A stretch of DNA of 64,000 nt, from the NCBI GenBank assembly GCA_022592445.1, contig JABYQR010000185.1:24510-88509 (forward strand), read 5' to 3'. This DNA is from Cytidiella melzeri (Eukaryota; Basidiomycota; Agaricomycetes; Polyporales; Irpicaceae). Both the position numbers and the translations under genes were made by a program. Positions within the stretch are counted from its first letter, which is position 1. Every line of letters starts with the position of its first letter. Positions 20,628 through 56,440 of this stretch are shown here, piece by piece. Under the pieces are notes generated by a model, which saw nothing but the letters and a program-made list of their open reading frames with translations, was not told where the DNA came from and searched no databases.

Positions 20628-21322
20628 TACTATGGGTTAGGGGGTGTTCGTAAGACTTCGGCGCTCAGCACATTGCGCTGGGAACACTCAACAAAATTTG
20701 TTTAAAAGTACATAAACCTGTGCGTGTGCATCTTGAAGATACACCGTAATTTATTCAAGCGTTTTGAAGAGGAAGAGCGAGCTGCGGCAGGATGCCGGCG
20801 AGGGATACAAAAGAGAGGGAGTGTTCGTAAAAACGTCACGGTTGGTCACACCGGCATCAGTCGGCAAATTTTCACTCTGACGCCAGACACAACGCGCAAA
20901 CGCGCCGTTGCGACGAGGCTACAATATGCGTCCTGGCGGAGTTTGAACCGTGCTTGGTCTCAAAGTCACGCAAGTCTCGACAATGCTCGTAAACACTACT
21001 TTACGCATCTACTCAGACATATCGGGCTGCTGGAGCAGGTTGCATGGCAATATTTGTTACTATGCTCCCGCGAGACGGATTCAGAATATGCACTAGATCA
21101 CCCCGAATCTCTCCCCATCAGTCCAAGTAGAGTGCAGAAACCCACCGCTTCGTCTCTAACGACCTCACACCTCATGTTTAAAATATATTTTTTACACCAA
21201 AAGAATTCTATAGTAGTCCTCTATTGCTCACAGCAGACTTGTAATATTTGGAGGTGCGGAATTATCGAACGTGGTAGTGTTCGTAAAAACAGGCGTTTAC
21301 GAACACCCCCTAACCCATAGTA
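20628..21322. mobile_element. Non-autonomous DNA transposon with perfect 26-bp terminal inverted repeats
   Basis: The 26 bases at 20628-20653 (beginning TACTATGGGTTAGG, ending TTCGTAA) recur as an exact reverse complement at 21297-21322. If the outermost TA is a target duplication, the element is 20630-21320 (~691 bp) with a 24-bp repeat and TA target. Inside, GTGTTCGTAAAAAC occurs at about 20820 and 21277; the latter forms a second inverted pair with the right terminus. No transposase domain is encoded. A Tc1/mariner-like relationship is suggested only by the TA duplication. Confidence 0.8.
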
Positions 21323-21344
21323 TATAGTTGGGAGATACTGTACA

Positions 21345-21357
21345 CACTGCACGTTAG
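21345..21357 (+). repeat. CACTA element left terminal inverted repeat
   Basis: CACTGCACGTTAG, exact inverse of 35301-35313, directly preceded by ACA. Confidence 0.88.
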
Positions 21358-21369
21358 CCCTGAATTCCC

Positions 21370-21475
21370 ATCGTGGATATCGCGTGTATATTAGTGATAT
21401 CCATCCGATATCCACCCTATATCCATTCACACTTATTTCCATGCAATAAAAATGAATGTAATATCCATATAAGCG
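21370..21475. repeat. CACTA element left subterminal repeats (ATATCCA motifs)
   Basis: At least six variants of GATATCC, TATATCCA, ATTTCCA and AATATCCA in about 100 bases, in both orientations. CACTA transposases and their helper proteins bind short subterminal repeats of this kind; the function here is inferred by analogy. Confidence 0.7.
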
Positions 21476-21701
21476 CCCATAACTATAATCCAGACCCGCA
21501 AGGAGCGCCCGTCGGCAGTACTCGTAAGCACAATTATATCCTGCGGCCGACTCATCAGCAATTGGCGCATCAGGAGCGTCCAAATCGAGCAGGCGTCGGC
21601 CGCTTCTGATTACATTACACTTCGGTGATGGCAACTGAACCGGATGGCGCAGCTGAGAACAACGGCTGCATTGCTTTCAACATCGCACCAAGACACTCAC
21701 A

Positions 21702-22213
21702 ATGTCAGAAGAACCACTGGAATCTCGGCTCGCTTGGAACAAGGTCGAGCCAGTCATTCAGGGCGATCCGGACTCGCACGCTGCCCTTAAGCAAGTGATT
21801 TCGTTGGCGGAATCTTTCGTCGCGCTCAAAGACGGCTTCAATGGCGACGATAACATGTCCGCCAACATTGTCGATTTCGCCTGCACGGTAGAGATGTGTA
21901 TCACTCAGGCATGCATGATAACCAGTGCGCAAGAGCTTTCCTTTGCATGCCGGAAGCTTGTGAAGTCTGTCGAGCTTCTTTGGCAGCGGCGCACCGAGCA
22001 TATATGCATGCAATCGTAAGTACAAATGTATCTGCAGTTAACGAAATAACTGATGTTCGTGTTGTTAATGTCAAGAACCTCCCTGACTCTGCCGGAAACT
22101 GTCAATATCTGTGGTTCGCCTGCGCAGCGCTCTCTCGCTCGCTACAAGTGAGTATCATGAATTTGGTATGCGCTCTCATGTCTGAAGATCAACAGACAAA
22201 CTACTCTCGATGA
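21702..22213 (+). CDS. Small passenger gene of unknown function in the CACTA element
   Basis: An ATG at 21702 opens a frame of about 105 codons (starting MSEEPLESRLAWNKV), mostly helical and acidic with scattered Cys residues. A GTAAGT near 22017 is a likely donor and ...CTGCAG near 22036 a likely acceptor, after which a second open stretch continues (SAVNEITDVRVVNVKN). The 3' end is not resolved, and coding could extend to about 22490. No family is recognised. It is the first gene inside the left end of the transposon, upstream of and convergent with the large minus-strand gene. Composition resembles the host genes more than a random frame, but the model is uncertain. Confidence 0.4.
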
Positions 22214-22824
22214 CTACTTCACTGTGACACAAAAACTGCCACATAATCAGTGCCGTGCCATTTATCCGCAGGCTCAACGGTCAGTGTCTTACCTCCAAAA
22301 CTGCACGGTATGAACAGCTCTCACACATTCATTCACAGACTCCCCTCGTATCGCCAACTCCCAATTGACATTTACTTTTACATTGTCGCTCCAGTTTCGA
22401 GATCCAAGTATCCGGCATTGGACGTGTTGTCGGCGCCGTCTGGATATCATACGAGCAAGCGAGCTGGAATGTATGATCTCAAATCACTGTAATAGACATT
22501 ATACGCACAACAAAGTATATAGCATGATTATGAGTGCACTCTGTTGCGGCGGAGGACTTGGAAATTGGCTCACCAGGCATCGAATAAGTTCCATTTTACG
22601 TATACACTCTGCGCGTGACTGGATAGAATGGGCACGTACCAATAGCGACAGTCAGCAAAGACCATATTGCCATGTCTGTACAGAGTGCGAAGCCCCACTG
22701 CACTCAGCGTACCAGCGCGCAATCCTGACATTCCAGTCTACTGATTAGCATACGTTTCCGAAATATATGACAGTCCCAGCGTAGAAAAGAGACAACATGG
22801 AGGACATGACGATGAAGCGCGAAG

Positions 22825-25800
22825 TTACATTGCAGCGGGTAAGGCACGACCTGAGAGTTCACCAATGTTCGTCAGCACGTTCGTCTTTGCAGCCTTCCTA
22901 TGAGGCAACGTCCGGCGCCATTCTTGAGCGGTTTTGGGCTGGACTTTACCGTCCAGTATCGCCTTGCGATGGTTCACGAAGAACTGCTCATTCCTGGCAC
23001 TCCAGTAGTCGAGGTCCACCCCCGATTGCGACCATGTCGTTACAGTTGGCCACCACGACCGATACGCAGTACCCGAAGGGCCATTCTCGGGGTGTTCTGA
23101 GATATAATCAGCATTGTGATTTGTCCAAGAAACATGGTACTTACCCGGCATGACCCTGTACACTCCGCAGATCACATCCTCTTGATGTGGCGATAATACA
23201 TCGTCCACATAGTCCAAGCCGTCTAGTATACGATGGTTACACTGTGTTTGGAACCCACTCGGACCGTCGTATACCGCTGAATTGTCTGCATAGGCGTCAC
23301 GGGCCAGTCGCCACAGCAAGCCGCCCCGTAACAAGGCAGCGCGACCCTGAACACTTTTGATGACCTCCTCTCGATATTCGAGGTAGTCCTCATAGTCCGC
23401 AATCGTGAACTTGTGACGATGCTCAATGAGTCCGAGCCCTAACGGTACCAGGTTGAAATTAGAGGGCATCGGGGGAGTTGGCTGAAGCACCGTTGGGTCC
23501 GCGATTGACTGCAGTGTGTTGAAGGGCACTCCCCATCTGAGCAATGCGCCAGTCACATCATCCAACGAGGGACCAACCCCGGATCGTAGGAGGTGGTTCA
23601 CGGTGACAGGGTCGGCCAGGCAAAGGGAGAATGATACATCGTTGGCCTGTGGATCCCGAGCGTACACAAAGTAGCAAGGGTGTTGCTTGTTGTCCAGTAC
23701 AGTCCGAACAATGAGGTCATTTCGACGGTGCAGCGGATGTCCTAGGGCAGTACCGGGCACAAGATCCGTGAGCGTGGGTGGCGGCATTACAAAGTTGCGC
23801 GGGTTGGCCTCGAGGTATGAAAAGAGTTCACACATTGGTGTGCGATACCCAGGACCAACCTTCTCATTGATGACCCCCATAAACTTGTATATCTCTTTTT
23901 CTCGCGACGTTGCCTCTTCATCCACGTCGACCGTCACCGCTGCGGATGTGAGTATGCCGTAGCGATAGCTCAGAGCCTGGTCGAATGCAATGCCTTTCCT
24001 CTGCAACAACTCGGGTGCACCAGACTGGGGCATTTGAGTGGATGAGGATGTACTTCCACTGGTGGAAGCAATCGGCTGCGGAGCCAGGGGAGGGGTGCGA
24101 GGTTGACGTCGAGGCGAGCGAGAACGACGTCGAGGAGAGGGAGGGCGACCAGGGGGAGAACGAGAACGACGTCGAGGAGAGGGAGGGCGACGAGGAGGAG
24201 AACGAGAGCGACGTCGAGGAGAGCGAGGGCGACGAGGAGGAGAACAAGAGCGACGAGGAGGAGAGCGAGGGCGACGAGGAGGAGAGCGAGGGCGACGAGG
24301 AGGAGAGGGAGAAGAAGGCGACTCAGGCGATGTCTCAGCCTGAGGACTCGCAGCCATGGGCGGATTCTGTAATCGCGGTGCGTCGTCAAAGTAGTCCTAA
24401 CTTTCCACCAATTCCTGATCCTCGGTCGTAGCAGATGGGTCCAGCTCCTCCCAAATGTCGAATTCGTTGAACACCGCATTGTACCTGCGTTGCGACCGAG
24501 CAGTGTCGGCCCACAAGTCGCGCCAGCGAGGCTTTCCGACAAGAACTCTGTTCCAGGCGCCGCTGCTGTCGTCTGACTCTTCCCATCTGAAGACTTGGCA
24601 GTTGTGGCTCTTGTTTGGGAGTTCGAGATTGGCATGCAGCACCTCCCTTGCTTGCACACGAGCCTTCTGCGCCAGATTCATTTGGGCGAGTTTCGCTGCA
24701 CTAACCTTCTCTCTCCTCGCAAAGAACTGCTGGGGTGTTTCACCCGGTGCCTGACCAGTGGTCGAACTTTGTCCTCGCGTGGCGACATAAAGAGGGCCAG
24801 GTGGGCGTGTCACGTTGCTCACTTGCGACGAGGTGGCAGGGGGCACATGGACAATGTTTGTGCCTTCAACTGAGGACGGCCAATGAGTTTCAAGTGAGCC
24901 CCAAGCAGAAGACGAGGATGGTGCTGAAGACGGCCAATGAGTATCAAGTGAGCCCCAAGCAGAAGACGAGGATGGTGCTGAAGACGATGAGGGGCCGCCC
25001 ATGGACTCCACGCCTACAACATCACGAGCCTCTGCGACTTCTTCGTCCCATTTGTCCCAAGCGAAACGCGTTGCAGGCTGTCGAAGTGAGGCTTCCAACT
25101 CAACTGCTGAGGGCAGATACTCGTTGGACCAAGGGTGCTCAGAAACTGCTGGGCGCGGTCCAAAGTACAGCCAGACAGGCAATTGAAAGTGGTTTATGAG
25201 ATCCTTGAGGTTCTCAAGTGTTGACCCCATTGCTCCGACGGTGACGTCGACGACAAGCCCCAATCTATCAGTGGTTGACTGGTCAGCCTTGTCGCCGACC
25301 AGGCAAATTGTAGACCTGCGCAACATGCGTGCCTCGTGTTCCGAAACCAGCTTCCTATGTTGCAATGTGTCCAACCAATGTTTAGGCAATACATGTCCCG
25401 CGTATGTCACCTTCGAAACGTTAATCCTGAAGACTCCTCGCACAAGGCCCAGGAACGATTTGGCTTGTTTTTTTGTTGGCCAACTGCGATCGTAGTTATA
25501 ATCTTGTGGCCAGGGAAACGTGTTACGATCTATCTGGACGAGGAGAGGCGTATACGATCCTAAGGGGAAAGTTCACTTCATCGCGTCGAGGACTCTGCGC
25601 AGGAAAGCCTCCAAGTCGCGCCACTCTTGTACATTCTCCAGCCTCCACTGGTTGTCGTTGCCTTGGACTACCTTGATTCCCGCCAGCGGTTGCAGCAGAC
25701 CGGTATACTGTGTCTCTCTCGGCGTGACCGCGGTCCAATAGTGTAATTGGTTGGCCAGTTCCGTGTAGAGCCATGGCCAGGGCAGCGGAAGGCGACCAAT

Positions 25801-25941
25801 GTTTTTTGTGAGGTTTTCCGGCGCAAGCTTCGGGAGAGTGGACATGTTGGGAGAGACATAGAGGCCAGGGTAGCGGGGGATATCGGTCTCAGAAGCCCAC
25901 AATACCGAGGGCTTGGGCAGGGTTTGGGGGAGGGTCGACAT
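22825..25941 (-). CDS. Large passenger gene of unknown function with SPPRR-repeat linker
   Basis: Three open stretches in order on the minus strand: 25941-25573 (starts MSTLPQTLPKPS), ~25500-24397 and 24357-22825. The second and third share one reading frame and are separated by a single TAG at 24399-24397. A 42-nt segment from GTGGAA to TTACAG around this stop could be spliced out in frame. The join between the first and second stretches needs a frame change I could not explain with a clean intron, so a frameshift is possible. The protein would have a Trp/Pro-rich N-terminus, a Ser-rich linker with a duplicated SSSSAWGSL..THWPSS unit, a Lys/Arg-rich helix, an SPPRR/SPRRR repeat tract (SR-like) and a ~400-residue C-terminal globular part (GVGPSLDDVTGALLRWGVPF). 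No enzymatic family is recognised. It could be a helper protein or cargo. Confidence 0.6.
24095..24312. repeat. In-gene minisatellite coding for SPPRR/SPRRR repeats
   Basis: Degenerate tandem units of 12-15 bases and 42-base higher-order units (GAGAACGAGAACGACGTCGA-like) give Ser-Pro-Arg repeats in the minus-strand frame. The array is a whole number of codons in each unit and so keeps the frame open. Confidence 0.75.
24855..24985. repeat. 57-bp tandem duplication in the passenger gene
   Basis: Two nearly identical ~57-bp units (GTATCAAGTGAGCCCCAAGC in one, GTTTCAAGTGAGCCCCAAGC in the other, followed by AGAAGACGAGGATGGTGCTG) encode a repeated Ser-rich segment. Confidence 0.7.
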
Positions 25942-26144
25942 ATCAGCGCTGCAGGGATATTAGTTTGGAGGCACAATCTGATCAGGGTAGGACACTTACG
26001 ACTTGTGATGGGGTCGGTGAGTAGCGAGTGTCTACGGCACAAGATGTAGGGAGAACTTGGCGACTATCAGCAACGAGCGAAAGCGTAGCGAAAATTTGTA
26101 CTTACGAGCAGAACAGTTTAGGCAAAGAAGGTGACGAGTTACTT

Positions 26145-26514
26145 GGACAGACAGATGCTCCGCTGTCGAGACAGTCAACGGTGAAGACTCCGGTAGCAGA
26201 TACTCCGCTAGCGTGAGTGTATGGAGGGGAGGAGGAGGTACTGCTGGCGGTGGAGGACTCCGGTGGCAGATTCTCCGCTACCGTGTCTGAGGATGTGTGT
26301 CGAAGGTCGTCGTCGAGATGTAGGTGCTGGGCGAGGACTACGGTGGCAGATTCTCCGCTACCGTGTCTGAGGACGTGTGTCAAAGGTCGTTGTCGAGATG
26401 TAGGTGCTGGGCGAGGACTACGGTAGCAGATTCTCCGCTACCGTGAGTGTATGGAGGGGAGGAGGAGGTACAGCTGGCGGTGGAGGACTCCGGTAGCAGA
26501 TGCTCCGCTACCGA
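26145..26514 (-). repeat. Left hairpin array: six stem-loops with loop AGATNCTCC
   Basis: Loops lie at 26153-26161, 26198-26206, 26268-26276, 26348-26356, 26428-26436 and 26498-26506. Flanking stems: GACAG/CTGTC (first), CGGTAGC/GCTAGCG (second, imperfect), then CGGTGGC or CGGTAGC with GCTACCG. Copies 3-5 are part of ~80-bp tandem units (GTGCTGGGCGAGGACTACGG). In the sense of the adjacent minus-strand gene the loop reads GGAGNATCT. Confidence 0.85.
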
Positions 26515-26790
26515 AAGTTGGAATGTGGGTGGTGGTTGTGGTGGTGAAGGAGGAAGACGTGTGGGTGGTGTTGATATTGGTGGTGGTGATATTGACGGTG
26601 GTGAGATTGACGGTGGTGAGAGCAAATGAGGAGGAGGAGGAGGTGGTGGTGGTGGAGGAGGAGGAGGAGGTGGTGGTGGTGGTGATGGTGGTGGTGGAGG
26701 TGGTGGTGGTGGTGGGAGGGCGTTGCAGGAGGAGGAGGTGGTGTGGTCGTCGTGGTACGTGGTGGTGGCAGTGAGAGTGGTTTGGGCGCC
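26515..26790. repeat. G/T-rich low-complexity tract (GGT, GGA, GGTGAT repeats)
   Basis: Almost pyrimidine-C-free plus strand, with runs of GGAGGA and GGTGGT between 26626 and 26760. The plus strand has many G-runs spaced for G-quadruplex formation. Open frames through this tract are low-complexity by-products. Confidence 0.85.
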
Positions 26791-26879
26791 TGAGATTGAA
26801 CCTTGTTCTATGGGCGCTCCGCGTTATAGATTACATTACCGACAACTTGCCAGCGCATTGTCGGGTTGCTTTTGCGCCC

Positions 26880-27690
26880 TCTACCTCCGACCACGACTAC
26901 GACGACATCCACTACCACAACCACAACCACCGCCTCGTACACCATCGCAGCGGAGCATCTGCTGCGATGGGTCGTATGATCACCACCTTCTTTTCCGCAC
27001 CACACAACCACTACCACTACCACTACCACTACCACTACCACTACCACGTCGACCACAACCACCGCCTCGTCCACCATCGCAGCGGAGCATCTGCTGCGAT
27101 GGGTCGTATGATTGCCACCTTCTTTTCCACATCACACGACCACAACCGCTACCACTACCACTACCACTACCACTACCACTACCACGTCGACCACAACCGC
27201 CGCCTCGTCCACCATCGCAGCGGAGCATCTGCTGCGATGGGTCGTTGTCCTCTACCTGCGACCACGACCACCACCACGACGTCCACTACCACCACCACAA
27301 CCACCGCCTCGTCCACCATCGCAGCGGAGCATCTGCTGCGATGTGTCGTATGATCACCACCTTCTTTTCCTCACCACATACCTGCGACCACGCCCACATC
27401 CACGACGTCCACTACCACCACCACAACCACCGCCTCCTACACTGTCGCAGCGGAGCATCTGCTGCGATGGGTCGTTGTCCTCTACCTGCGACCACCACCA
27501 CCACCACCACCACCACCACAACCACGACGTCCACTACCACCACCACAACCACCGCCTCCTACACTGTCGCAGCGGAGCATCTGCTGCGATGGGTCGTTGT
27601 CCTCTACCTGCGACCACCACCACCACCACCACCACCACCACCACGACATCCACTACTACGACTACAACCACCGCCCTATACACTGTCGCA
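26880..27690. repeat. C/A-rich low-complexity tract (CCA, CCACTA repeats)
   Basis: Plus strand dominated by CCACCA, CACTAC and CCACAA, with two clean CCACTA runs at about 27009-27047 and 27150-27184. It is the strand-mirror of the tract at 26515-26790 and interleaves with the right hairpin array. The 379-codon open frame across it (26723-27862) is a low-complexity by-product. Confidence 0.85.
26941..27592 (+). repeat. Right hairpin array: six stem-loops with loop GGAGCATCT
   Basis: Loops at 26952-26960, 27084-27092, 27222-27230, 27326-27334, 27452-27460 and 27574-27582. Three or four copies have a perfect 10-bp stem CCATCGCAGC/GCTGCGATGG; the last two have CTGTCGCAGC on the 5' side, leaving a shorter paired core. 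The loop is the reverse complement of the left-array loop, so the sequence reads the same in the sense of each divergent gene. Confidence 0.87.
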
Positions 27691-28150
27691 TGAACTGCTC
27701 TCTTCACGGATCTGCATGCCCTCGAGCACATTGCTACAAGACACTCCCCGAAGCTGCTTACTGGGACCCTTCGTTTCCTACCGGCAACAACGCCAGGATC
27801 GATATCCTGTCGGCTTAACCGTCGACGGATATCGGACACTGCCCTGTCGGCTTGACCGTTGATGGATTTTGGCTGAGCACTCACGGACGTCTGAAGGGGG
27901 CGAGCTGCAAAACACTCCTTCTCCCCTGTACACTCTCCACCCTCTCTCTCTCTCTCAAAACTCGCATTCATTTGCAGATTCTCGGATTTGTACTGGAGGG
28001 TGTTACTCCGATCACGCTTTGTCGCGCGAGCGCTTCTATGTCACGTGTCTCCTGCCTTGTTAGGAAAGTCAGCCTAGACGTTGCGCAAGTCAAGACGTCT
28101 CATTGACTGTATGCTGCCACCACTCGCCGCCATTGATCACATTTTCTCTG

Positions 28151-31100
28151 ATGCCACACAAGACTCTCTGCCCATGTCAGGAATGTCAGATTGCAGGTGG
28201 CCAATTTCACACCACCGAGCAGATTCGACGACATCTCAAGCGTGAGCAGCTCTTGCAGCGAGAGATTGAGCAATCTTTGGATGAGGAACCCAAGAGAAAA
28301 GCCAAGACAGCCCATGCTGTCGTCTCCGAAGCGCATACGCAACCTGCAGATCATATGACGCAGCAGAGAGAGTGGGAGGACATGGGCAATCCCGCAGGGG
28401 ACTATGAACCACCGCCTGTGAGTTACCATCATTTGTTGTGCAGCAAACTCAATGTACTCAATGCAAGTAGACTTGTTCAGACTCAAATGAAGCTGATGGT
28501 GAAGATCCGTACCTGGATGAATTGTACCTGGATCCATCTAGGGCTTCTGGTAATGTCAATCCCCATGATCACTGTGCGCAATGTTTCTGATGCTTCCAAT
28601 CTGGCAGATTCCAATCGCTGGAATGACCATGAGCATTTCTCTCGATCGCCTTCTCTTCCGGACTGGCAGTCCTCTCGAAGCCAGTCCCTTGAGACAGAAC
28701 AAGATGATGAAGACGACACCACCTCTGACAATGCTGGGCTCAACCTAGAGCAGGACCCTCTCTATGTCGACCTTGAAAATATTTTTGACGAGTTACACCA
28801 ACCGCCGGATGACATGTTTGCCCGGGGGGTCGATCAGGATTTACCGTCAGCTTTCTACGAGGATCCCATCATTCGCAATATCTACCTTCGCGTCTTTCTG
28901 GACGCAACATTCAACCACGCCACCCACGAATCTGTTCAATCTCAGCTCGACGCTCACCACCAGACACTTAAAGCCTGTCAGGAACGCGGTTTGGTCATTG
29001 CGGGGCTCGACACAATGGCGCGAACCATTCGCACTGTTGAACGACGACTAGGCGTTGACCCTGATTGTTATCTGGTATACTATTTTGTCTGCGATGTTTG
29101 CTGGGATCGTCACCACCCTGATGAACTCAGCACACTAGCCTCACCAGCATGCCAACGAGACGACTGCGATGGCCGTCTCTATACCGTCAAGCATCTTGAG
29201 AAACAAGTGAAACGCGTGCCCAATAAAGTCCTAGCCACTTGCCCCATCATTCCACAAATCCAACGCATGATGCTGCGTCCAGGAAAGTACGAAGAATTTC
29301 AACACTGGCGTACCGCAGACGATGAGCCAGGACCGTGTGCACCGGATCGCCGAGAGGGATTGGATGCTTTTCCCGATCCAGATGCACCTCTGCGAGACAT
29401 CTACGATGGATGGGCTTGGCGTGCTGCGCAAGCAGGGCTATCACGTAGGCAAGGTGGTGAATGGGGCGTTCAGGACGTGGACACCACACAAATCAACCAG
29501 CGGTTTGTCTCGTTGCCCAATGGGCTACTCATCATGATCAACATTGACTGGTATGCCACCTCTTGCTGCGCTCTATGGTGGTCAATTTTAATTGATGCCA
29601 CAGGTTTACTCCCATGAAGACCAACAATTTTGCGAGCAAGTACTCGTGCGGGGCCATGTACGCTACCATCTTAAACAATCCAAGGCAAAAGCGGTTTCAT
29701 CGCGATGAAACCATGCTCCTTTGCGTCATACCAGGACCTGGCGAGCCCTCACTCGAGCAGCTTAATGCTGTCATTGAGCCATTCGTGGCTGACATGTTAC
29801 AGCTTGGTGATGGTACGCCCTTCATCTCAGTCTCATTTGCAGCCATCTGATTGAATGGCAGGTGTTCCGCTGAGAGCCCACAGTGTAAACGAGCGCGTGC
29901 TTACTCACGCGTCCGTGTTCATAAATTCTTCAGATTTACCTGCAAGTCGCAAGGTAACCGGGCTCCGATCGTGTACCAGCAAATACTTCATGTGTCCGTG
30001 GTGCTGTCAAACGGTGGCATCGCTCACACACGAGGACTGTTTCACTCCACAAAGTGAGTCAATCTATAAATTGATTGACCTTTGTCAGATGTACATTTGC
30101 GGCCTATAGAGTTTCAACCGCGTAAGGACTGGCGATACCTGAAATACGCATTCTTAGCTCGAAACAAGGACGCTGCAGAGCGCGAGGAGATTGCTCGAAT
30201 GAAAGGTATACGATGGTCAGCACTTGACGAGCTGCCCGGTTGGCTGCCAGCACGAAACTCTCCACTAGAGTTCATGCAAGCCACGTTTCTTGGTAAGATG
30301 TTTGTATTCGTGGATGCAGGCTTACCGTACTTACTCTTCGCTACAGGGGAGGTGCATCACGTCATGCAGGAAATTATAGTGGGTGGAGGAATGCTCAATG
30401 CACGCAATCGCCACGATAAGCCAAAGGAGAAGTTCACTGCTTTTTTGGCATCAATAGAGTGGCCTGGGTCCATTGGCCGGATACCTGCCAAGGTGAGTCA
30501 CCGGGATGTAATCATATCAGCATTTAATCGACCCATTGTGTAATGAGGTCGATGAGGGAACCCTGAAAGCAGATCAGTGGCGAAATTTTGCCAATGTTCT
30601 GCCTGTGGCTCTGTATTGTGCCTGGCAGATTGACGGCAAGATTCCAAACACTGATGCACCCAGGTCCAAAGCGTCAACAAAGGCAGGCCAAGCTGAAGCC
30701 CGAAAAGAATCTCTACTTGCAGGCTGCCGCCGCGAAGTGCGTGCACTTGATCAGAATGTAACAGTCGAAGACTTGCAAGACAGCGACGACGAGGGGGCCC
30801 TACGTGAGGATCAAATCAAGATGAGTTGTAGCTACAGTGACCATTACGAGAACATCCTCAACCACTGCACTGCTGTACGGATCTACGCGTCTCGGTCTAT
30901 TACACCGAGAGAGGTAATGCGCGCTGGCAAAAACCACAGTCGCGCGTGTGCCTCGTGGGCACGAATGGGGTGTCATTTGACACCCAACTTTCACCTTTCT
31001 GAACACAATCCTGACTTTCTACTAGCATACGGCCCTCCATACGGATACTGGGGCTATCCAATGGAGCAGCACAACGGGTTTCTCAAGCAGTTTCGCCACA

Positions 31101-32154
31101 ACGGACATTCTGGTGGAGAGCTCGAAGCAACCCTGATGCGTGGCTGGATCAAATATGGCCTCATCTCTGATCTGGTTACACACCCCTGCCTACGTGTATA
31201 CATGTGTCTGATGATTTATAGGTGAACCACCTTCGATCGCTAGAAGACCCGACAGACTGCGACCGCCAAATGATCCAAATGCTGGAGAATTACCAGGGGG
31301 GGGGCATAAAGGCACGCGACGCAACACGCTCATGAATGCGATGGCTGCCAGAGTAAACACAGCTGAGGGTAAGATTGAATGCATTTGAGGGTATCTTGCT
31401 CAGTTGATTGGATGTAGGTTCTATCGAATATCCGTCCCGCTCTCACGCCATCAACCTCAAAACTGATGTTGCCGTGGCGCCAGGCCACAATCTCTATGCC
31501 CTCATGCTAATTTATTTGCAGAACCTTTGGCATGCCGAGTTAGCCCTTGTGCCAGACACGGCACCTGCAAACATGGGCGAACCCTTTGTTTGTTCTTCCG
31601 TTAGGATGTACAGTCATGTCTCATTCAACGGCATAAAGTATGGCTCTGGTGCCAAGCACGGGGGTAAAGCATATCGCCATGCGTACATTGACGGACGACA
31701 GCCAGTTTGCATCGCAGCTGTACTGCATGTGAAGCATCTCCGAGCAGATGCCCGTTTAGCACCACTGGAACATACTTGCGCGGTAGTGCAGCGATTCATA
31801 TCAGATCCTCATACACCTGGCATGCCCTGGGATTTACAGTGAGTATGTCTTCCCTTTAATATACGGATCTCACTCGTCATTGCTAGTGCGATAGATCTAG
31901 GTCTGTCCATATGGAAGGCCAACTGTTTAGCCCCCCCCGAGCTCGTGCCAATCACTCGAATGTGTGCACAATTTGCGTGTGGAACACTCACTTACAGGAC
32001 ACAGCGTGAGTTTTGGGTCACAATGTCTGTATGTCATGTAGGTCAATTCATGCTACGTACTTGACAATTGGTTATCACAAACTTGCTATTACTACAGGAC
32101 GCACAAGAGCCGGATCTCGCTCTTGGAGGAGACGCAGAAGACAATCTTGACTAA
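28151..32154 (+). CDS. Tnp2-family (CACTA/EnSpm-like) transposase
   Basis: A multi-exon gene; start at the ATG 28151 (MPHKTLCPCQECQ). N-terminal Cys/His motifs (CPCQEC; CDVCWDRHHPDE...CQRDDCDG) look like zinc binding. The core shows blocks shared by fungal Tnp2/plavaka-type transposases: IYDGWAWRAAQ, MINIDWFTP (joined across an intron at ~29552-29603), GAMYATILNNPRQKRFHRDE, LLCVIPGPGEPSLEQLNAV, DLPASRKVTGL, CPWCCQT, GPPYGYWGYPMEQHNGFLK and EATLMRGW. The C-terminal part around 31400-31840 (HVSFNGIKYGSGAKHGGK) completes the usual architecture. Every interruption I checked is bridged by a plausible short intron in the right phase, so the gene looks intact. The stop at 32152-32154 overlaps the stop of the convergent gene. 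The enzyme is expected to bind the subterminal repeats and cut the element ends. Confidence 0.85.
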
Positions 32155-34822
32155 GCTGACGCGTACATGTCATCGTCTTGACTGCCATCCTGAGAGTATG
32201 TGTAGCGCGGACTACCTTCGTCGACGTCACGATCGGCGTGCAAGTTGTCACCTAGGCCTCTGTCCCACACTCCCGTATGCTGGCCACTTCTGAAGTGCGC
32301 TCTCTCATCAGCCCAATTACCTTCACTGTGCCTGTCGCCAAACTCCTCTCTGTCTCTCGCTCTGTCGTCACCAAATTCCTCGTGCTCGTTACCCATGGCT
32401 CCACCAAACTGACTCTCCATGCCACTTCTGAAGTGCGCTCTCCCATCAGCCCAATTACCTTCACTGTGCCTGTCGCCAAACTCCTCTCTGTCTCTCGCTC
32501 TGTCGTCACCAAATGCCTCGTGCTCGTTACCCATGGCTCCACCAGACTGACTTTCCATGTGTTGACCTCGAAGGTCATCCACGTGCGTACCATTTTGTTC
32601 TTCATTGTAAACAACAGGCTGGTTCGATGGATGCGTCGAGCCTCGCATCTCATTGGCTGCGACGCTTGCTAATCGTGGACGGATGTAGGTATCGTTGTCC
32701 TGGTTGGAATTCTCACGTTGCGCTAGCCAAGCAGCATCAATGTGAGTACGATCAATGCTATCTGCCGCGTTTGCTCGACCTCGCTTTGGCAGCGGAATGT
32801 CGATTGGTTCGCCCAAGATGTGTGCATGTCTACTACCTGAGTGTGAGTGCAAATCCAGCTTGTTGAAGAGTGCATTGATCTGACAGAGAAGTTAGAGTCG
32901 GCTTGAATGCATGGTTGTGTGTTTGCTCACCTCTTGCGTACAGTACGTAGGCTGCCTTCTGACCCACGGTTGGGAAGAAGGCTTCTTCTTTGATCCAGTG
33001 TTCCGGATACAACCAGCAACTGCCTGCGATGCTTGAGGATCATCACTATCAGGCGACAGCCGGTTGTTGTTGCCACGGGTAGGTGAATCATCTTCTGCTG
33101 CTGAGTACTCATCTGACTGGTATTTGGCTAGGAACATCCAGTTGTAATCCGGTCCCGCAATCTCTGGAACCTTGTCGCGGTTTTGAATCCTAGCTTTGAC
33201 TTTCTACAGGTAGCTTGACTTGTCAAACACGGTGTATATGGAAAAGCTGAGTACACACCGTCACCCTGCGCTGTTTCACGCGAGCCTCGCCAGCTAATTT
33301 CTCTTTCTCCTGTGCAGATTTGCAATCCTTGAGCCATTTGTGGTGCAGACTCGTCCAATAAGTCTGGGTTGCATTCTGCAATTCTACTACGGTGAGAGAT
33401 GCAAAGAATTGCTCGGCGTCAACCCCGCGTGGTACCATGTACAGCTGCTTCCCTTGATTCTTGGCTTTTTCAACAACCTCATCTCGCCAGGATATCTCAT
33501 TTGGCAACCAGGCAGACCAGATTGGACGCAGGCGGCGAGAGTGATCAAGAGGATCATCGCTGGTCCAGACTCTTCCATCAGGAAGATGCGGCGTTGTTTC
33601 ATTCGAGCTGATGACGGTTCCCATCAATGTCCTCATGACAGCGCGAATGAGTCCCTGCAGCAGACGTAAGACACGGTACGTCTGCAGATGGCATTGGCGA
33701 TTACATGGTACTCACATTTATCATTGGCTCTCTAGTTCTCACTACTCCTCCTGACACAGATGCCGCAGAACCAGACGCAGACATTGCACTACCGTCCCCA
33801 CCGGCCGCAATGTAGGCACGTATCTCATTCATTTCACAGCGTAACGAGGTGAGCTCTTGCCGTGTCAACTCCTCCGTCTCTCTTGAGCCTTGATAGAAAG
33901 CATACAATTCATTTGTGGTACGCCGGAGCTCTGCCAAGTCCAACGAGGTCTCCCTACACTGCTTTGCAAGCTTGCCAATATCTGTCGTGTTGAGATTTCC
34001 TGTTGTTTGTAAGTGTCTCAACGAATCCTCGAGGGACTTCATTCTATCACTGATAGCTTTCACGGTATTGGCCGTATTGGCAGAGCTAGACAGTGGGCGA
34101 GGTTGCATATCTACGGCTCCGAAGGTCATGGCCATGGGCTGTCGGCTGCTGGCACGTGCGCGAGAAGACATAGGTGAGTTATTAGGCAATGCCATCGCGG
34201 AAACAACGAGACCAGACGGCTCAATCGAGGGAGTGCGCGAACGAGAAGGTGTTATTGACAAGGGACGGCGAGAATATGAGGAGGGATGACCAGGCCCTAG
34301 GGAATATGGACTGCTGGACATGCCAGGTGGGTTATCAGTCGCGGTATGCGCTTGTTGCTGATTGGGTGGCAGGGTAGACAAAGGTTGAGCAATGCGGGAA
34401 AATGGATCGTTGGATGGAGGGTATATTCGGTTGGGATGCGTGTCTGCCGAGGCATGCATATAATCTTGCGCATGAAGCTGAGCAGGAATAGACGAGGCGC
34501 GATGCGAATGGGAGAATGGAAATTGGAAACCGGAGAGTGGCTGCGACAAGGAGGTACAAGCTATGGGCTCTGATGAAATACTTGCAGAGCCTGGACTTAT
34601 AGGGCGTTGTAGGGCAGGATATCGATTAGAAGGAACTTCAGCTCCGGAGGCTGACGAGGGTGGACGAGTCTTTCTTTTGCCGAGAGGGCTGGTAGCGGGA
34701 TTCGTCTGAGACATAGTGAGACGACGCGCGGGGAGCAAAGTTGTGGGACTGGACGGCGCAGACCAAGCTGGGGGTGGGAGCAAGGTGAGCTCAATGTTCG
34801 AATTCGCAGCAGCTGTGTGCAT
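32151..34822 (-). CDS. CACTA accessory protein with coiled coil, convergent with transposase
   Basis: Minus-strand exons around 34822-33710, ~33660-33245, ~33205-32930 and ~32880-32151 join in frame by short introns. The N-terminal ~200 residues are Pro/Ser/Arg-rich and disordered. A coiled coil follows (SDRMKSLEDSLRHLQ, LAELRRTTNELYAF). The next exon has a compact segment (GRVWTSDDPLDHSRRLRPIW, VELQNATQTYWTSLHHKW) and a basic helix. The C-terminus is acidic with a 46-residue tandem duplication. A second start candidate is the Met at 34714. It pairs with the transposase tail-to-tail, as the second gene of a two-gene CACTA element would; a DNA-binding helper role like plant TNPA is an inference. 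No catalytic domain is seen. Confidence 0.7.
32283..32558. repeat. 138-bp tandem duplication inside the accessory gene
   Basis: Units 32558-32421 and 32420-32283 encode two 46-residue copies (MESQSGGAMGNEHEAF... and MESQFGGAMGNEHEEF...) that differ at three residues. The unit is divisible by three and keeps the frame. Confidence 0.9.
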
Positions 34823-34864
34823 TACTGATCAGGATAAATCCAAATTACTAGTTGTGTTCATGTT

Positions 34865-35060
34865 GCACGCGCGCGAATCACATTCATCATGCGTCGTCGT
34901 ACGCACGCGTACTGTACAGTTAAGTTTGATATCGATGTCGACGTCGACGTCGCGCATGCAGCACAATCCTCACGGTCGCGAGTATACGTATACGTATACT
35001 AGCTATAGCTATAGGTACATGTACATTAGTATTACAGGTCAATGTATCCTGTACATGCAT
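34865..35060. repeat. Cluster of short perfect palindromes at the accessory gene promoter
   Basis: Within 200 bases upstream of the minus-strand accessory gene: GTCGACGTCGAC (around 34937), a perfect 20-bp palindrome AGTATACGTATACGTATACT (34981-35000), AGCTATAGCT (35001-35010), GTACATGTAC (around 35014) and GCGCGCG stretches. Possible binding sites of a dimeric factor or cruciform-prone DNA. Confidence 0.75.
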
Positions 35061-35164
35061 GGTCAGCTCGCGCGTGGTGTGCAATGGCATAGTGGCCAAA
35101 AATCAATTAAATTCTGAATATTAATATACTGCCCGATTATAATTATCGCTGATCAGGCGTCTAC

Positions 35165-35300
35165 GTGGATATTGAATGGATACAGCATGGAAATTCCAAC
35201 TATTCTTGGCTCTATCCACGCAATATCCATTCTGAGAAGTGCATGGATATTGCGTGGAAATTTTCCATATCCACGAAATATCCATCGTTGATATTCACGT
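35165..35300. repeat. CACTA element right subterminal repeats, with 16-bp-arm hairpin
   Basis: Multiple TGGATAT and ATATCCA variants in both orientations. A perfect 16-bp inverted pair (35215-35230 TCCACGCAATATCCAT and 35243-35258) surrounds a 12-base loop. The reverse complement of 35140-35185 resembles 21410-21480 at the left end (shared TATCCATTCA, ATATCCA and ATAAYTATAATC words). Confidence 0.75.
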
Positions 35301-35313
35301 CTAACGTGCAGTG
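35301..35313 (-). repeat. CACTA element right terminal inverted repeat
   Basis: CTAACGTGCAGTG, exact inverse of 21345-21357, followed by the target duplication ACA. Confidence 0.88.
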
Positions 35314-35471
35314 ACAGCTGAGTATGACTCAACAGTCAAGACATGGACTTCAAAATTCAAATTTGAGCTTAGGCGGCTGAACGCCACGATGTTTCCGGAA
35401 CGACCGGCCCGCCCAGCTATAGGATTATTGCACTGCGCAGCGACGATGACTTACACTCAACTTCAACCACT

Positions 35472-54912: not shown

Positions 54913-55735
54913 TTCCCAATAATACCGTTGCCTAGTAAGGCAAGTCTTGTAGAAACATTGAAAATCTGTGACACAACTATTCCATCCGGAGTTGGGCGTG
55001 CGTCCTGGTTCACCTCTTCCCAGCGAAAGTGGTTACCTTTATGTTTGGTCCAGAAAAGGTGTGCTGGAGTATACGTCTATCTGCTCATACCAGAGCTTAC
55101 TGTCACATCTACTCAGCGCCCAGTGTTACAATTCCTGAAGAATGAAGAAGAATTGTTCCAGTGTGCTCCAGCACATTGATGCCTTTTCAGATGTGACCTT
55201 TTTGTGCCCCAAAGTGTGGGAATCTGATGGCAGAATACAGAAATTAACAGTGTCAATAACAAAACAATGAATACAGCTGATGGCATCACACTGGCCTTGT
55301 TATCAGCCCTTTGTAACTTTGTATCAGATCACACTTGCAATCAAAATGCAGTTTTTGATTTTTACAGACTGCACATGGGTACAAATCTGTACATATTATA
55401 CACCATTGGATAGCCCTATCTTGTGGCAACATCTTGGTACAAACATCCTGTCAGTTGAAGTGGAATTGAGCAAGTTATGGCCAATCTACTGAAAAAGGTC
55501 ACTCAGACTCAGATTCAAACTGCACTCTTGCTATGATGTCAGATTCTGGTCAGGTACATGTGCAGCAGTCTACAGATATTGCTTGCTCTCTGAACAAGGA
55601 ATACAATTAGAAGACATGCCACACATAGTATTGGCTCTGAGCAAGAGTTACCAGTACTTTGGAAGCTAACTACCAAACCCAATCCCTACATTCTTGGACA
55701 ATGTAAATTTGTGGCTGCATTAGTAGTGAGTACTG
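54913..55735. other. A/T-richer sequence without recognised gene
   Basis: About 820 bases; no open frame with family resemblance. Possibly the decayed body of a repeat element linked to the neighbouring satellite. Confidence 0.4.
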
Positions 55736-56440
55736 TATCTGATTGTTTCACAAAGTTTCACAACTGTTAGTTGCTCTTTAAGCAGGAATTACAATCAGAA
55801 CACAGCCTGTGGCAGTTCCAATGGGGTGAGGCAGTTCAGACATCAACAGTACATGGCTGCATCAGCAGCAAGCACTGCGCTGGATTGTTGCACAAAGTTT
55901 TACAACCATTAGTTGCTCTCTAAGGAGGAGTTAAAATCAGAACATAGCCTGTGGCAGTTCTGATGGGGCTGAGGCAGTCCAGACATCAACAGGCCGTGGT
56001 TGCATCACCATAGAGCACTGCCTTTGATTCTTCCACACAGTTTCACAACCACCAGTTGCTCTATAAGCAGGAGCTACAATCAGAACATAGCCTGTGGCAG
56101 CTCTCATGGGGGTGAGGCAATGCAGACATCAGCTAGACATGGTTTCATCAGCAGCCAGCGCTGCATTCAATTGGTCCACAAGATTTCACAACCATTAGTT
56201 GCTCCCTAAGGAGGAGTTACAATCAGAGCACAGCCTGTGGCAGTTTCAATGGAGATGAGGCAGTTCTAGTGGGGCTGAGGCAGTTCAGACATTAACAGGA
56301 CACATTTGCATCACCACAGAGCACTGCCTTTGATTCTTTCACACAGTTTCACAACCACTAGTGGCTCTATAAGCAGGAGTTACAATCAGAACACAGCCTG
56401 TGGCAGTTTCAATGGAGATGAGGCAGTTCATACCTCAACA
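55736..56440. repeat. ~143-bp satellite, about five tandem copies
   Basis: The words TTTCACAACCA, AGTTGCTCT, TACAATCAGAACA and AGCCTGTGGCAG recur with the last at about 55803, 55945, 56088, 56231 and 56394. Spacing is ~143 bases three times and ~163 the last time, where a ~20-base partial duplication (GTGGGGCTGAGGCAGTTCAG) is inserted. Copies differ by roughly 10-20 percent by eye. Confidence 0.85.

What the first reader, a model, noticed from the sequence alone, without database searches (positions are those of the whole stretch)
21345..35313. A complete ~14-kb CACTA transposon with passenger genes, defined base by base
Seen directly: 13-bp perfect inverted repeats (CACTGCACGTTAG) at 21345 and 35313, identical ACA flanks, similar subterminal motif arrays, and a Tnp2-family transposase inside. 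Known: CACTA/EnSpm elements make 3-bp duplications and start CACT(A/G). Inferred: this is one mobile unit carrying at least two genes (21702 and 22825-25941) besides transposase and helper, unusually large and gene-rich. It lies 159 bp ahead of the Swp1 gene's start codon.
Basis: partly seen in the sequence, partly recalled or inferred. Interest (0 to 1): 0.88.

Follow-up and report, generated by a model that had tools for sequence, protein, structure and literature searches.

The report
Fungal jumping gene with swappable cargo
A 14-kb jumping DNA element in a wood-decay fungus really is one mobile unit, and a 6.5-kb block of its extra genes is shared almost unchanged with a different family of jumping elements, which suggests that such elements trade cargo.

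Summary
The finding holds. 21345-35313 is a CACTA (EnSpm) transposon: perfect 13-bp ends, ACA/ACA duplication, Tnp2 transposase, ATATCCA arrays at both ends. The genome (inferred: Cytidiella melzeri) has 35 exact end sites; 12 of 13 end pairs carry exact 3-bp duplications, mostly different ones. Two more full-length copies are collinear; ten shorter pairs share mainly the ends. An empty site for a related copy lies in this very window.

Corrections: this copy is damaged. Passenger gene B has two in-frame stops here but is open (1038 aa) in copy C501. The "helper" is one spliced gene, 32151-34714. 14 kb is not exceptional.

New: block 21680-28141 (gene A, gene B, B-transposase spacer) is 95-98% identical to element C207, which has different ends and a transposase only 59% identical in DNA. 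Synonymous divergence is 0.016 in B, saturated in the transposase. The B tree mixes both families (AU p<1e-4). B relatives (54-60%) lie head-to-head with a Plavaka transposase at five loci. Best reading: B and its divergent promoter form a module traded between transposon lineages, as known for TET/JBP genes. B's function is unknown; mobility was not tested.

The parts
21342..21344 (.). left target-site duplication ACA
21345..21357 (+). left 13-bp TIR CACTGCACGTTAG
   Evidence: 35 exact sites in the genome
21345..21504 (.). left subterminal array, 5 ATATCCA motifs on either strand
21680..28141 (.). cassette shared at 95-98% (C207) and 92-97% (C690) with family-2 CACTA elements: gene A, gene B and the B-transposase spacer
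21702..22016 (+). gene A, first exon (105 aa); later exons uncertain
   Evidence: 21 matches in the genome
22825..25943 (-). gene B (passenger), broken here by TGA 25573-25575 and TAG 24397-24399; open for 1038 aa in C501
25944..28150 (.). repeat-rich spacer between the divergent starts of B and the transposase
28151..31842 (+). transposase T (Tnp2); exons 28151-29550, 29604-29812, 29862-30053, 30089-30292, 30347-30492, 30548-31174, 31222-31297 and later ones uncertain after the G-run near 31298
   Evidence: hand model, no RNA data
32151..34714 (-). gene E (second gene, possible helper, 798 aa); exons 34714-33716, 33654-33259, 33203-32931, 32879-32151
   Evidence: hand model, no RNA data
35124..35313 (.). 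right subterminal array, 5 ATATCCA motifs on either strand
35301..35313 (-). right 13-bp TIR
35314..35316 (.). right target-site duplication ACA

Best explanation
The interval is a CACTA/EnSpm cut-and-paste transposon. Its Tnp2 transposase, probably with the second gene E, would act on the 13-bp ends and the ATATCCA arrays and insert with a 3-bp duplication (ends, duplications and copies are shown; the mechanism is inferred from the known family). The element is a mosaic (shown): the block 21680-28141, with gene A, gene B and the spacer from which B and the transposase are divergently transcribed, is shared almost unchanged with a second CACTA family that has other ends, another transposase and another helper. 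Exchange most likely happens when the gap left by excision is repaired by copying a related element and the copying switches template, or by gene conversion inside the shared block (inferred). Because B is under long-term purifying selection and keeps its head-to-head place beside several transposases, Plavaka included, B is most likely an accessory gene of the transposons that is expressed together with the transposase, and not a stray host fragment (inferred, about 0.6). The step it serves is unknown; a regulatory or anti-silencing role is a guess. The window copy is probably no longer autonomous.
For: Ends and duplications: 35 exact sites, 13 pairs, 12 with exact 3-bp duplications. Full-length collinear copies C178 and C501. 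Empty site for C210. Tnp2 domain. Second family: TIR CACTGCACATCAG, 18 sites (control 1), three pairs with duplications CGT, ATA, TCA. Mosaic: W-C207 identity 98.45% in A-B, 95.4% in the spacer, 58.6% in T, 46.8% in E; dS 0.016 in B, saturated in T. B tree rejects each family as a clade, p 7.7e-5 and 4.6e-8. B near Plavaka at 5 loci. dN/dS of B between subfamilies 0.20-0.34.
Against: No transposition was observed. By my hand models none of the three full-length copies is intact in all genes. Among recent copies B shows weak or no constraint: dN/dS 0.54-0.68 against C178 and above 1 on very few changes between W and C501, as expected if B is not needed in each copy. The TIRs of the Plavaka elements were not read, so B is not shown to lie inside them. 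C21 lacks an exact duplication. B has no known domain.
Confidence: 0.85

Rival explanations
1. An ordinary CACTA element that once captured host gene pieces; the passengers have no role in its life.
For: No known domain in B; B broken in the window copy and in C178; weak constraint among recent copies; short copies with foreign interiors show that these ends do pick up other DNA.
Against: B is multi-copy (about 38 loci), open in several copies, and shows dN/dS 0.20-0.34 between subfamilies. It keeps its head-to-head place beside the transposase in family 1, family 2, C731 and at five Plavaka loci.
Confidence: 0.3
2. The cassette is alike in both families only because it is strongly conserved, without exchange.
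For: B is conserved between subfamilies.
Against: Synonymous sites of B are nearly identical (dS 0.016) while those of T are saturated; the non-coding A-B stretch is 514 of 523 identical; the B tree contradicts the families.
Confidence: 0.02
3. The cassette is itself a small transposon nested in elements of both families.
For: It has the same two edges in C207 and C690.
Against: I see no inverted repeat or duplication at 21680 and 28141 by eye; the block sits in the same place relative to A and T in both families.
Confidence: 0.05
4. The mosaics are assembly errors that join repeats.
For: 731 contigs; several contigs share flanks and look like allelic or duplicate copies.
Against: The family-2 end lies 214 bp from gene A on 7 of 8 contigs where both were found and 220 bp on the eighth (C4, C207, C328, C436, C587, C638, C725; C33). 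C4, C33 and C207 have matching duplications.
Confidence: 0.03

Closest known systems
CACTA / EnSpm transposons (maize En/Spm, recalled; soybean Tgmt*, 20.5 kb, PMC2613891)
   Same: CACT-type ends, 3-bp duplications, subterminal arrays, Tnp2 transposase with introns, short derivatives that keep the ends
   Different: Two extra genes in a block shared with another family; the second gene E has no detected likeness to a known helper
TET/JBP-carrying fungal DNA transposons (PMC12730594)
   Same: An extra gene moves between transposon lineages of fungi; edges of the shared stretch have no signature
   Different: Other gene, no dioxygenase match; 6.5 kb including the control region; 95-98% identity here, where the paper reports one case above 70%
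Plavaka transposons (PF18759; PMC12730594)
   Same: Relatives of B lie head-to-head with a Plavaka transposase at 5 loci of this genome
   Different: The window transposase matches PF02992 and gave no PF18759 match at E up to 1; its ends are not TGT or CATCA

Membership tests
CACTA / EnSpm | Terminal inverted repeats that begin CACT(A/G) | tested here: met
   CACTGCACGTTAG at both ends
CACTA / EnSpm | 3-bp target-site duplication | tested here: met
   ACA/ACA here; 12 of 13 pairs exact; empty site for C210 with one trinucleotide, AAG for GAG
CACTA / EnSpm | Tnp2-type transposase | tested here: met
   PF02992 E 1.3e-9, above the cut-off
CACTA / EnSpm | Repeated subterminal motifs | tested here: met
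   10 ATATCCA in 350 terminal bases, shuffle maximum 2
CACTA / EnSpm | Second, TnpA-like DNA-binding gene | tested here: inconclusive
   Gene E is present and follows T in other copies but has no family match above cut-off
CACTA / EnSpm | C(2)C and H(3-4)H motifs between catalytic residues | tested here: inconclusive
   CPWC and HLSEH are seen in the T protein by eye; catalytic residues were not mapped
CACTA / EnSpm | Excision and insertion | not testable with these tools
   Only copies and sites were compared
Plavaka | Plavaka transposase domain and TGT or CATCA termini | tested here: not met
   No PF18759 match for T at E up to 1; ends are CACTG
TET/JBP-carrying transposon | A TET/JBP dioxygenase gene inside the element | tested here: not met
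   No Pfam family for B at E up to 5; no dioxygenase match for the other proteins scanned

The most novel reading that the evidence does not exclude
Gene B with its divergent promoter is a previously undescribed accessory module that fungal DNA transposons of different lineages (CACTA and Plavaka) trade and keep under selection, so that B and whichever transposase is present are driven from one exchangeable control region. Transposons within one genome would then evolve like phages, by module exchange.
Probability: 0.45. Interest if true: 0.75.

Novelty: new variant of a known kind. Interest (0 to 1): 0.6.

Why it matters
Passenger genes are usually read as accidents of capture. Here one genome holds two CACTA families with different ends and transposases at synonymous saturation that share a 6.5-kb block at up to 98% identity. 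That makes the exchange of parts between transposons directly traceable. It also names a gene, B, that selection has kept beside transposases of at least two kinds, so its role in transposition or in escape from silencing can be tested.

Tried and rejected
Structure of B: AlphaFold2 on a 6-sequence alignment gave mean pLDDT 34.7, too poor to use, so no fold search was run. Wider relatives of B: two protein searches gave 4 proteins of C. melzeri, 1 of Irpex rosettiformis and 1 unnamed; both scored only the candidates that share most words, so absence elsewhere is not shown. Relatives of E (residues 200-640): 1, same species. PDB sequence search with B: 10 weak matches, mostly arginine-rich capsid tails aligned to the SR-rich stretch, not meaningful. 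Empty allele of this insertion: none; the right flank matched only this contig, and the left flank lies in a repeat with 38 other scored matches. Empty sites for 13 joined flanks were sought in held DNA only; 1 of 13 found. The PF02992 and PF18759 genome scans miss intron-split genes, including the window's own, so their counts are not used.

Papers, by search listing: Cytidiella melzeri with transposable element, 0; Plavaka, 11; EnSpm with 2 of 3 further terms, 3; passenger genes in CACTA or basidiomycete transposons, 49, of which 20 were listed; chimeric CACTA, 22, of which 15 were listed; cargo moved between superfamilies, 8. No listed title or abstract start describes this element or gene B; most papers were not opened. 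Of PMC12730594 I saw the abstract, passages and sections 3.4 and 4.1; of PMC2613891 the abstract and outline.

B tree: 5 family-1 and 7 family-2 copies were used with 2 outgroup rows; C49, C579 and C431 were in the first tree but left out of the AU test because their family is unknown. C690 and C31 were assigned to family 2 by transposase alone (no exact family-2 TIR was found in the held C690 stretch), C587, C725 and C328 by left TIR alone, C166 by transposase and E. C587, C725 and C328 share a left flank and may be copies of one insertion.
Full report
Where it is. The window is C96:24510-88509 of a 49.7-Mb genome in 731 contigs. Three database proteins of Cytidiella melzeri come from contigs of 58091, 161694 and 174475 bases, the lengths of C216, C579 and C501 here. 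I infer that the fungus is C. melzeri (Irpicaceae, Polyporales).

The element. The 13-bp ends and ACA flanks are as described. The exact 13-mer has 35 sites in the genome and 0 for the reversed control. They make 11 exact pairs, 2 more pairs whose second end has 2 mismatches (C39, C210), and 11 sites left unpaired in the stretches fetched, some near contig ends. Of the 13 pairs, 12 have an exact 3-bp duplication: ACA (window), CTC (C178), ATG (C501), CAT (C11), AAC (C38), TAC (C80), CTA (C190), TCA (C232), CAA (C401), CAT (C715), AAA (C39), GAG (C210); the exception is C21 with GTT and TGT. Chance per pair is about 1 in 64. C178 (13,620 bp) and C501 (13,619 bp) are full-length and collinear with the window copy. 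The other ten pairs, 0.56 to 7.8 kb, share mainly the ends, with a few internal repeat matches in C210; C232 (565 bp) is a derivative that keeps the left end and part of gene A. C38 and C715 carry elements of the same length with different duplications. The joined flanks of C210 match the window at 55271-56071 at 89% straight through the insertion point, with the trinucleotide once (AAG there, GAG twice around C210). This is a copy of a repeat that was never hit, and it supports the 3-bp duplication directly. No empty allele of the window insertion was found.

Genes. T, the transposase, begins at 28151; my hand model is open for 951 aa and matches tnp2. A G-run near 31298 has 9, 12 and 14 Gs in the window, C501 and C178, and the window model meets a stop soon after it, so the last exons are uncertain or out of frame. 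E is one gene, 32151-34714, with 4 exons; the ORF at 32151-32891 is its last exon. A starts at 21702. B runs from 25943 down to 22825. In the window copy B has two in-frame stops; in C178 it lacks a piece and has stops; in C501 it is open for 1038 aa. In turn C501 has a 1-bp gap in T and a shifted end of E, and C178 a TAG in T and one in E. By these models none of the three full-length copies is intact in all genes.

The cassette. Genome searches gave 67 matches for B (about 38 loci), 71 for T, 38 for E and 21 for A; the tool calls such counts lower bounds. C207, C690, C31 and C4 have A and B at 91-98% identity but T at about 57-63% in the longer pieces and E at 24-38%. C207 and C690 were fetched in part. 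The stretch shared with the window is 21680-28141, abrupt on both sides: it starts 22 bp before the ATG of A and stops about 10 bp before the ATG of T. C207 has other ends, CACTGCACATCAG, with 18 sites in the genome against 1 for the reversed control. Three pairs, on C4, C33 and C207 (10.0, 9.3 and 18.5 kb), have duplications CGT, ATA and TCA. This is a second CACTA family. On 7 of 8 contigs where both were found its end lies 214 bp from gene A, on the eighth 220 bp.

Numbers for the mosaic. Window against C207: A-B part 4189 of 4255 (98.45%), spacer 1884 of 1975 (95.4%), T 2002 of 3415 (58.6%), E 966 of 2065 (46.8%). Against C690: 96.9, 92.5, 58.6 and 47.9%. Against C178 of its own family: 94.9, 92.5, 97.3 and 97.8%. 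dS against C207 is 0.016 in B and beyond correction in T; against C178 it is 0.079 in B and 0.040 in T. In two stretches of the cassette (21702-23600 and 24345-25943) 119 sites group the window with C207, 22 with C178, and 25 group C178 with C207; in 28151-34714 the counts are 64, 2560 and 49. The B tree of 12 copies of assigned family rejects each family as one clade (p 7.7e-5 and 4.6e-8). The window copy and C501 join C207 and C4 at 100/99. Well-supported branches force at least 2 changes of family, the best tree has 4, and the family label is no more clustered than in shuffles. So exchange happened more than once, or one transfer was followed by gene conversion. Beside C501, 7 bp beyond its duplication, lies a family-2-like end: elements of both families do land side by side.

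B beyond these two families. By main pieces, 16 B loci are 44-60% identical. On C216 a divergent gene about 2 kb from B matches Plavaka (PF18759, E 6.5e-10). That transposase piece finds 8 loci at 75% identity or more: C216, C301, C579, C395, C557, C549, C153 and C222. Of these 8, 5 have B head-to-head at 1.9-2.4 kb (C216, C549, C579, C557, C153). C216 and C549 are 95% alike over the 5.8 kb held and may stem from recent copying. C731 has B at 52% beside a divergent Tnp2 gene (PF02992, 8e-18). The other 10 of the 16 were not resolved. Between the window's B and T starts lie 2.2 kb. Between subfamilies B has dN/dS 0.20-0.34 at dS 0.84-1.44; among recent copies the ratio is higher, 0.54-0.68 against C178 and above 1 on very few changes for the window against C501. 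So B was kept by selection in the long run, while single recent copies decay.

How it most likely works. Shown: ends, duplications, copies, mosaic, shared neighbours. Inferred: cut-and-paste by T with E; exchange by template switching in gap repair or by gene conversion in the block; B as an accessory protein made together with T. Gap repair with template switching is recalled from other transposons and was not looked up; it would also explain short copies with foreign interiors.

Against what is known. Membership in CACTA is met on ends, duplication, transposase and subterminal arrays; the helper and the motif placement are inconclusive; mobility is untested. Transfer of an extra gene between fungal transposon lineages is known for TET/JBP genes (PMC12730594, sections 3.4 and 4.1 read): there too the edges lack a signature, and one case exceeds 70% DNA identity. 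The present case differs in gene, size, recency and in including the control region. I call it a new variant of a known kind.

Noticed in passing
window 21085-21322: The left flank lies in another repeat with 38 other scored matches in the genome (72-100% identity in most); its shared part ends about 22 bp before the TIR.
   Followed up: partly
window 55271-56071: A copy of another repeat; on C210 the same repeat is interrupted by a 2139-bp relative of the element, so the window shows the empty site.
   Followed up: yes
L019 1517-3757: The 7.8-kb element on C190 has the window element's ends but carries a DDE_3 gene (PF13358, E 2.6e-10), perhaps a nested or captured transposon of another kind.
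   Followed up: partly
L030, just beyond the right TIR: 7 bp beyond the duplication of the C501 element stands a family-2-like end, CACCGCACATCAG.
   Followed up: no
G000 contig C98, about 15.4-38.3 kb (not fetched): Signs of a third family: A at 83%, T pieces at 49-80%, E at 47% identity, no B match listed.
   Followed up: no
C725, C436, C587, C328 (L062, L063, L037, L052): Four contigs have the same flank beside the family-2 end, so the assembly probably holds allelic or duplicate copies.
   Followed up: partly
window 24090-24312: Gene B has an arginine-serine-proline-rich repeat stretch whose length differs between copies.
   Followed up: no
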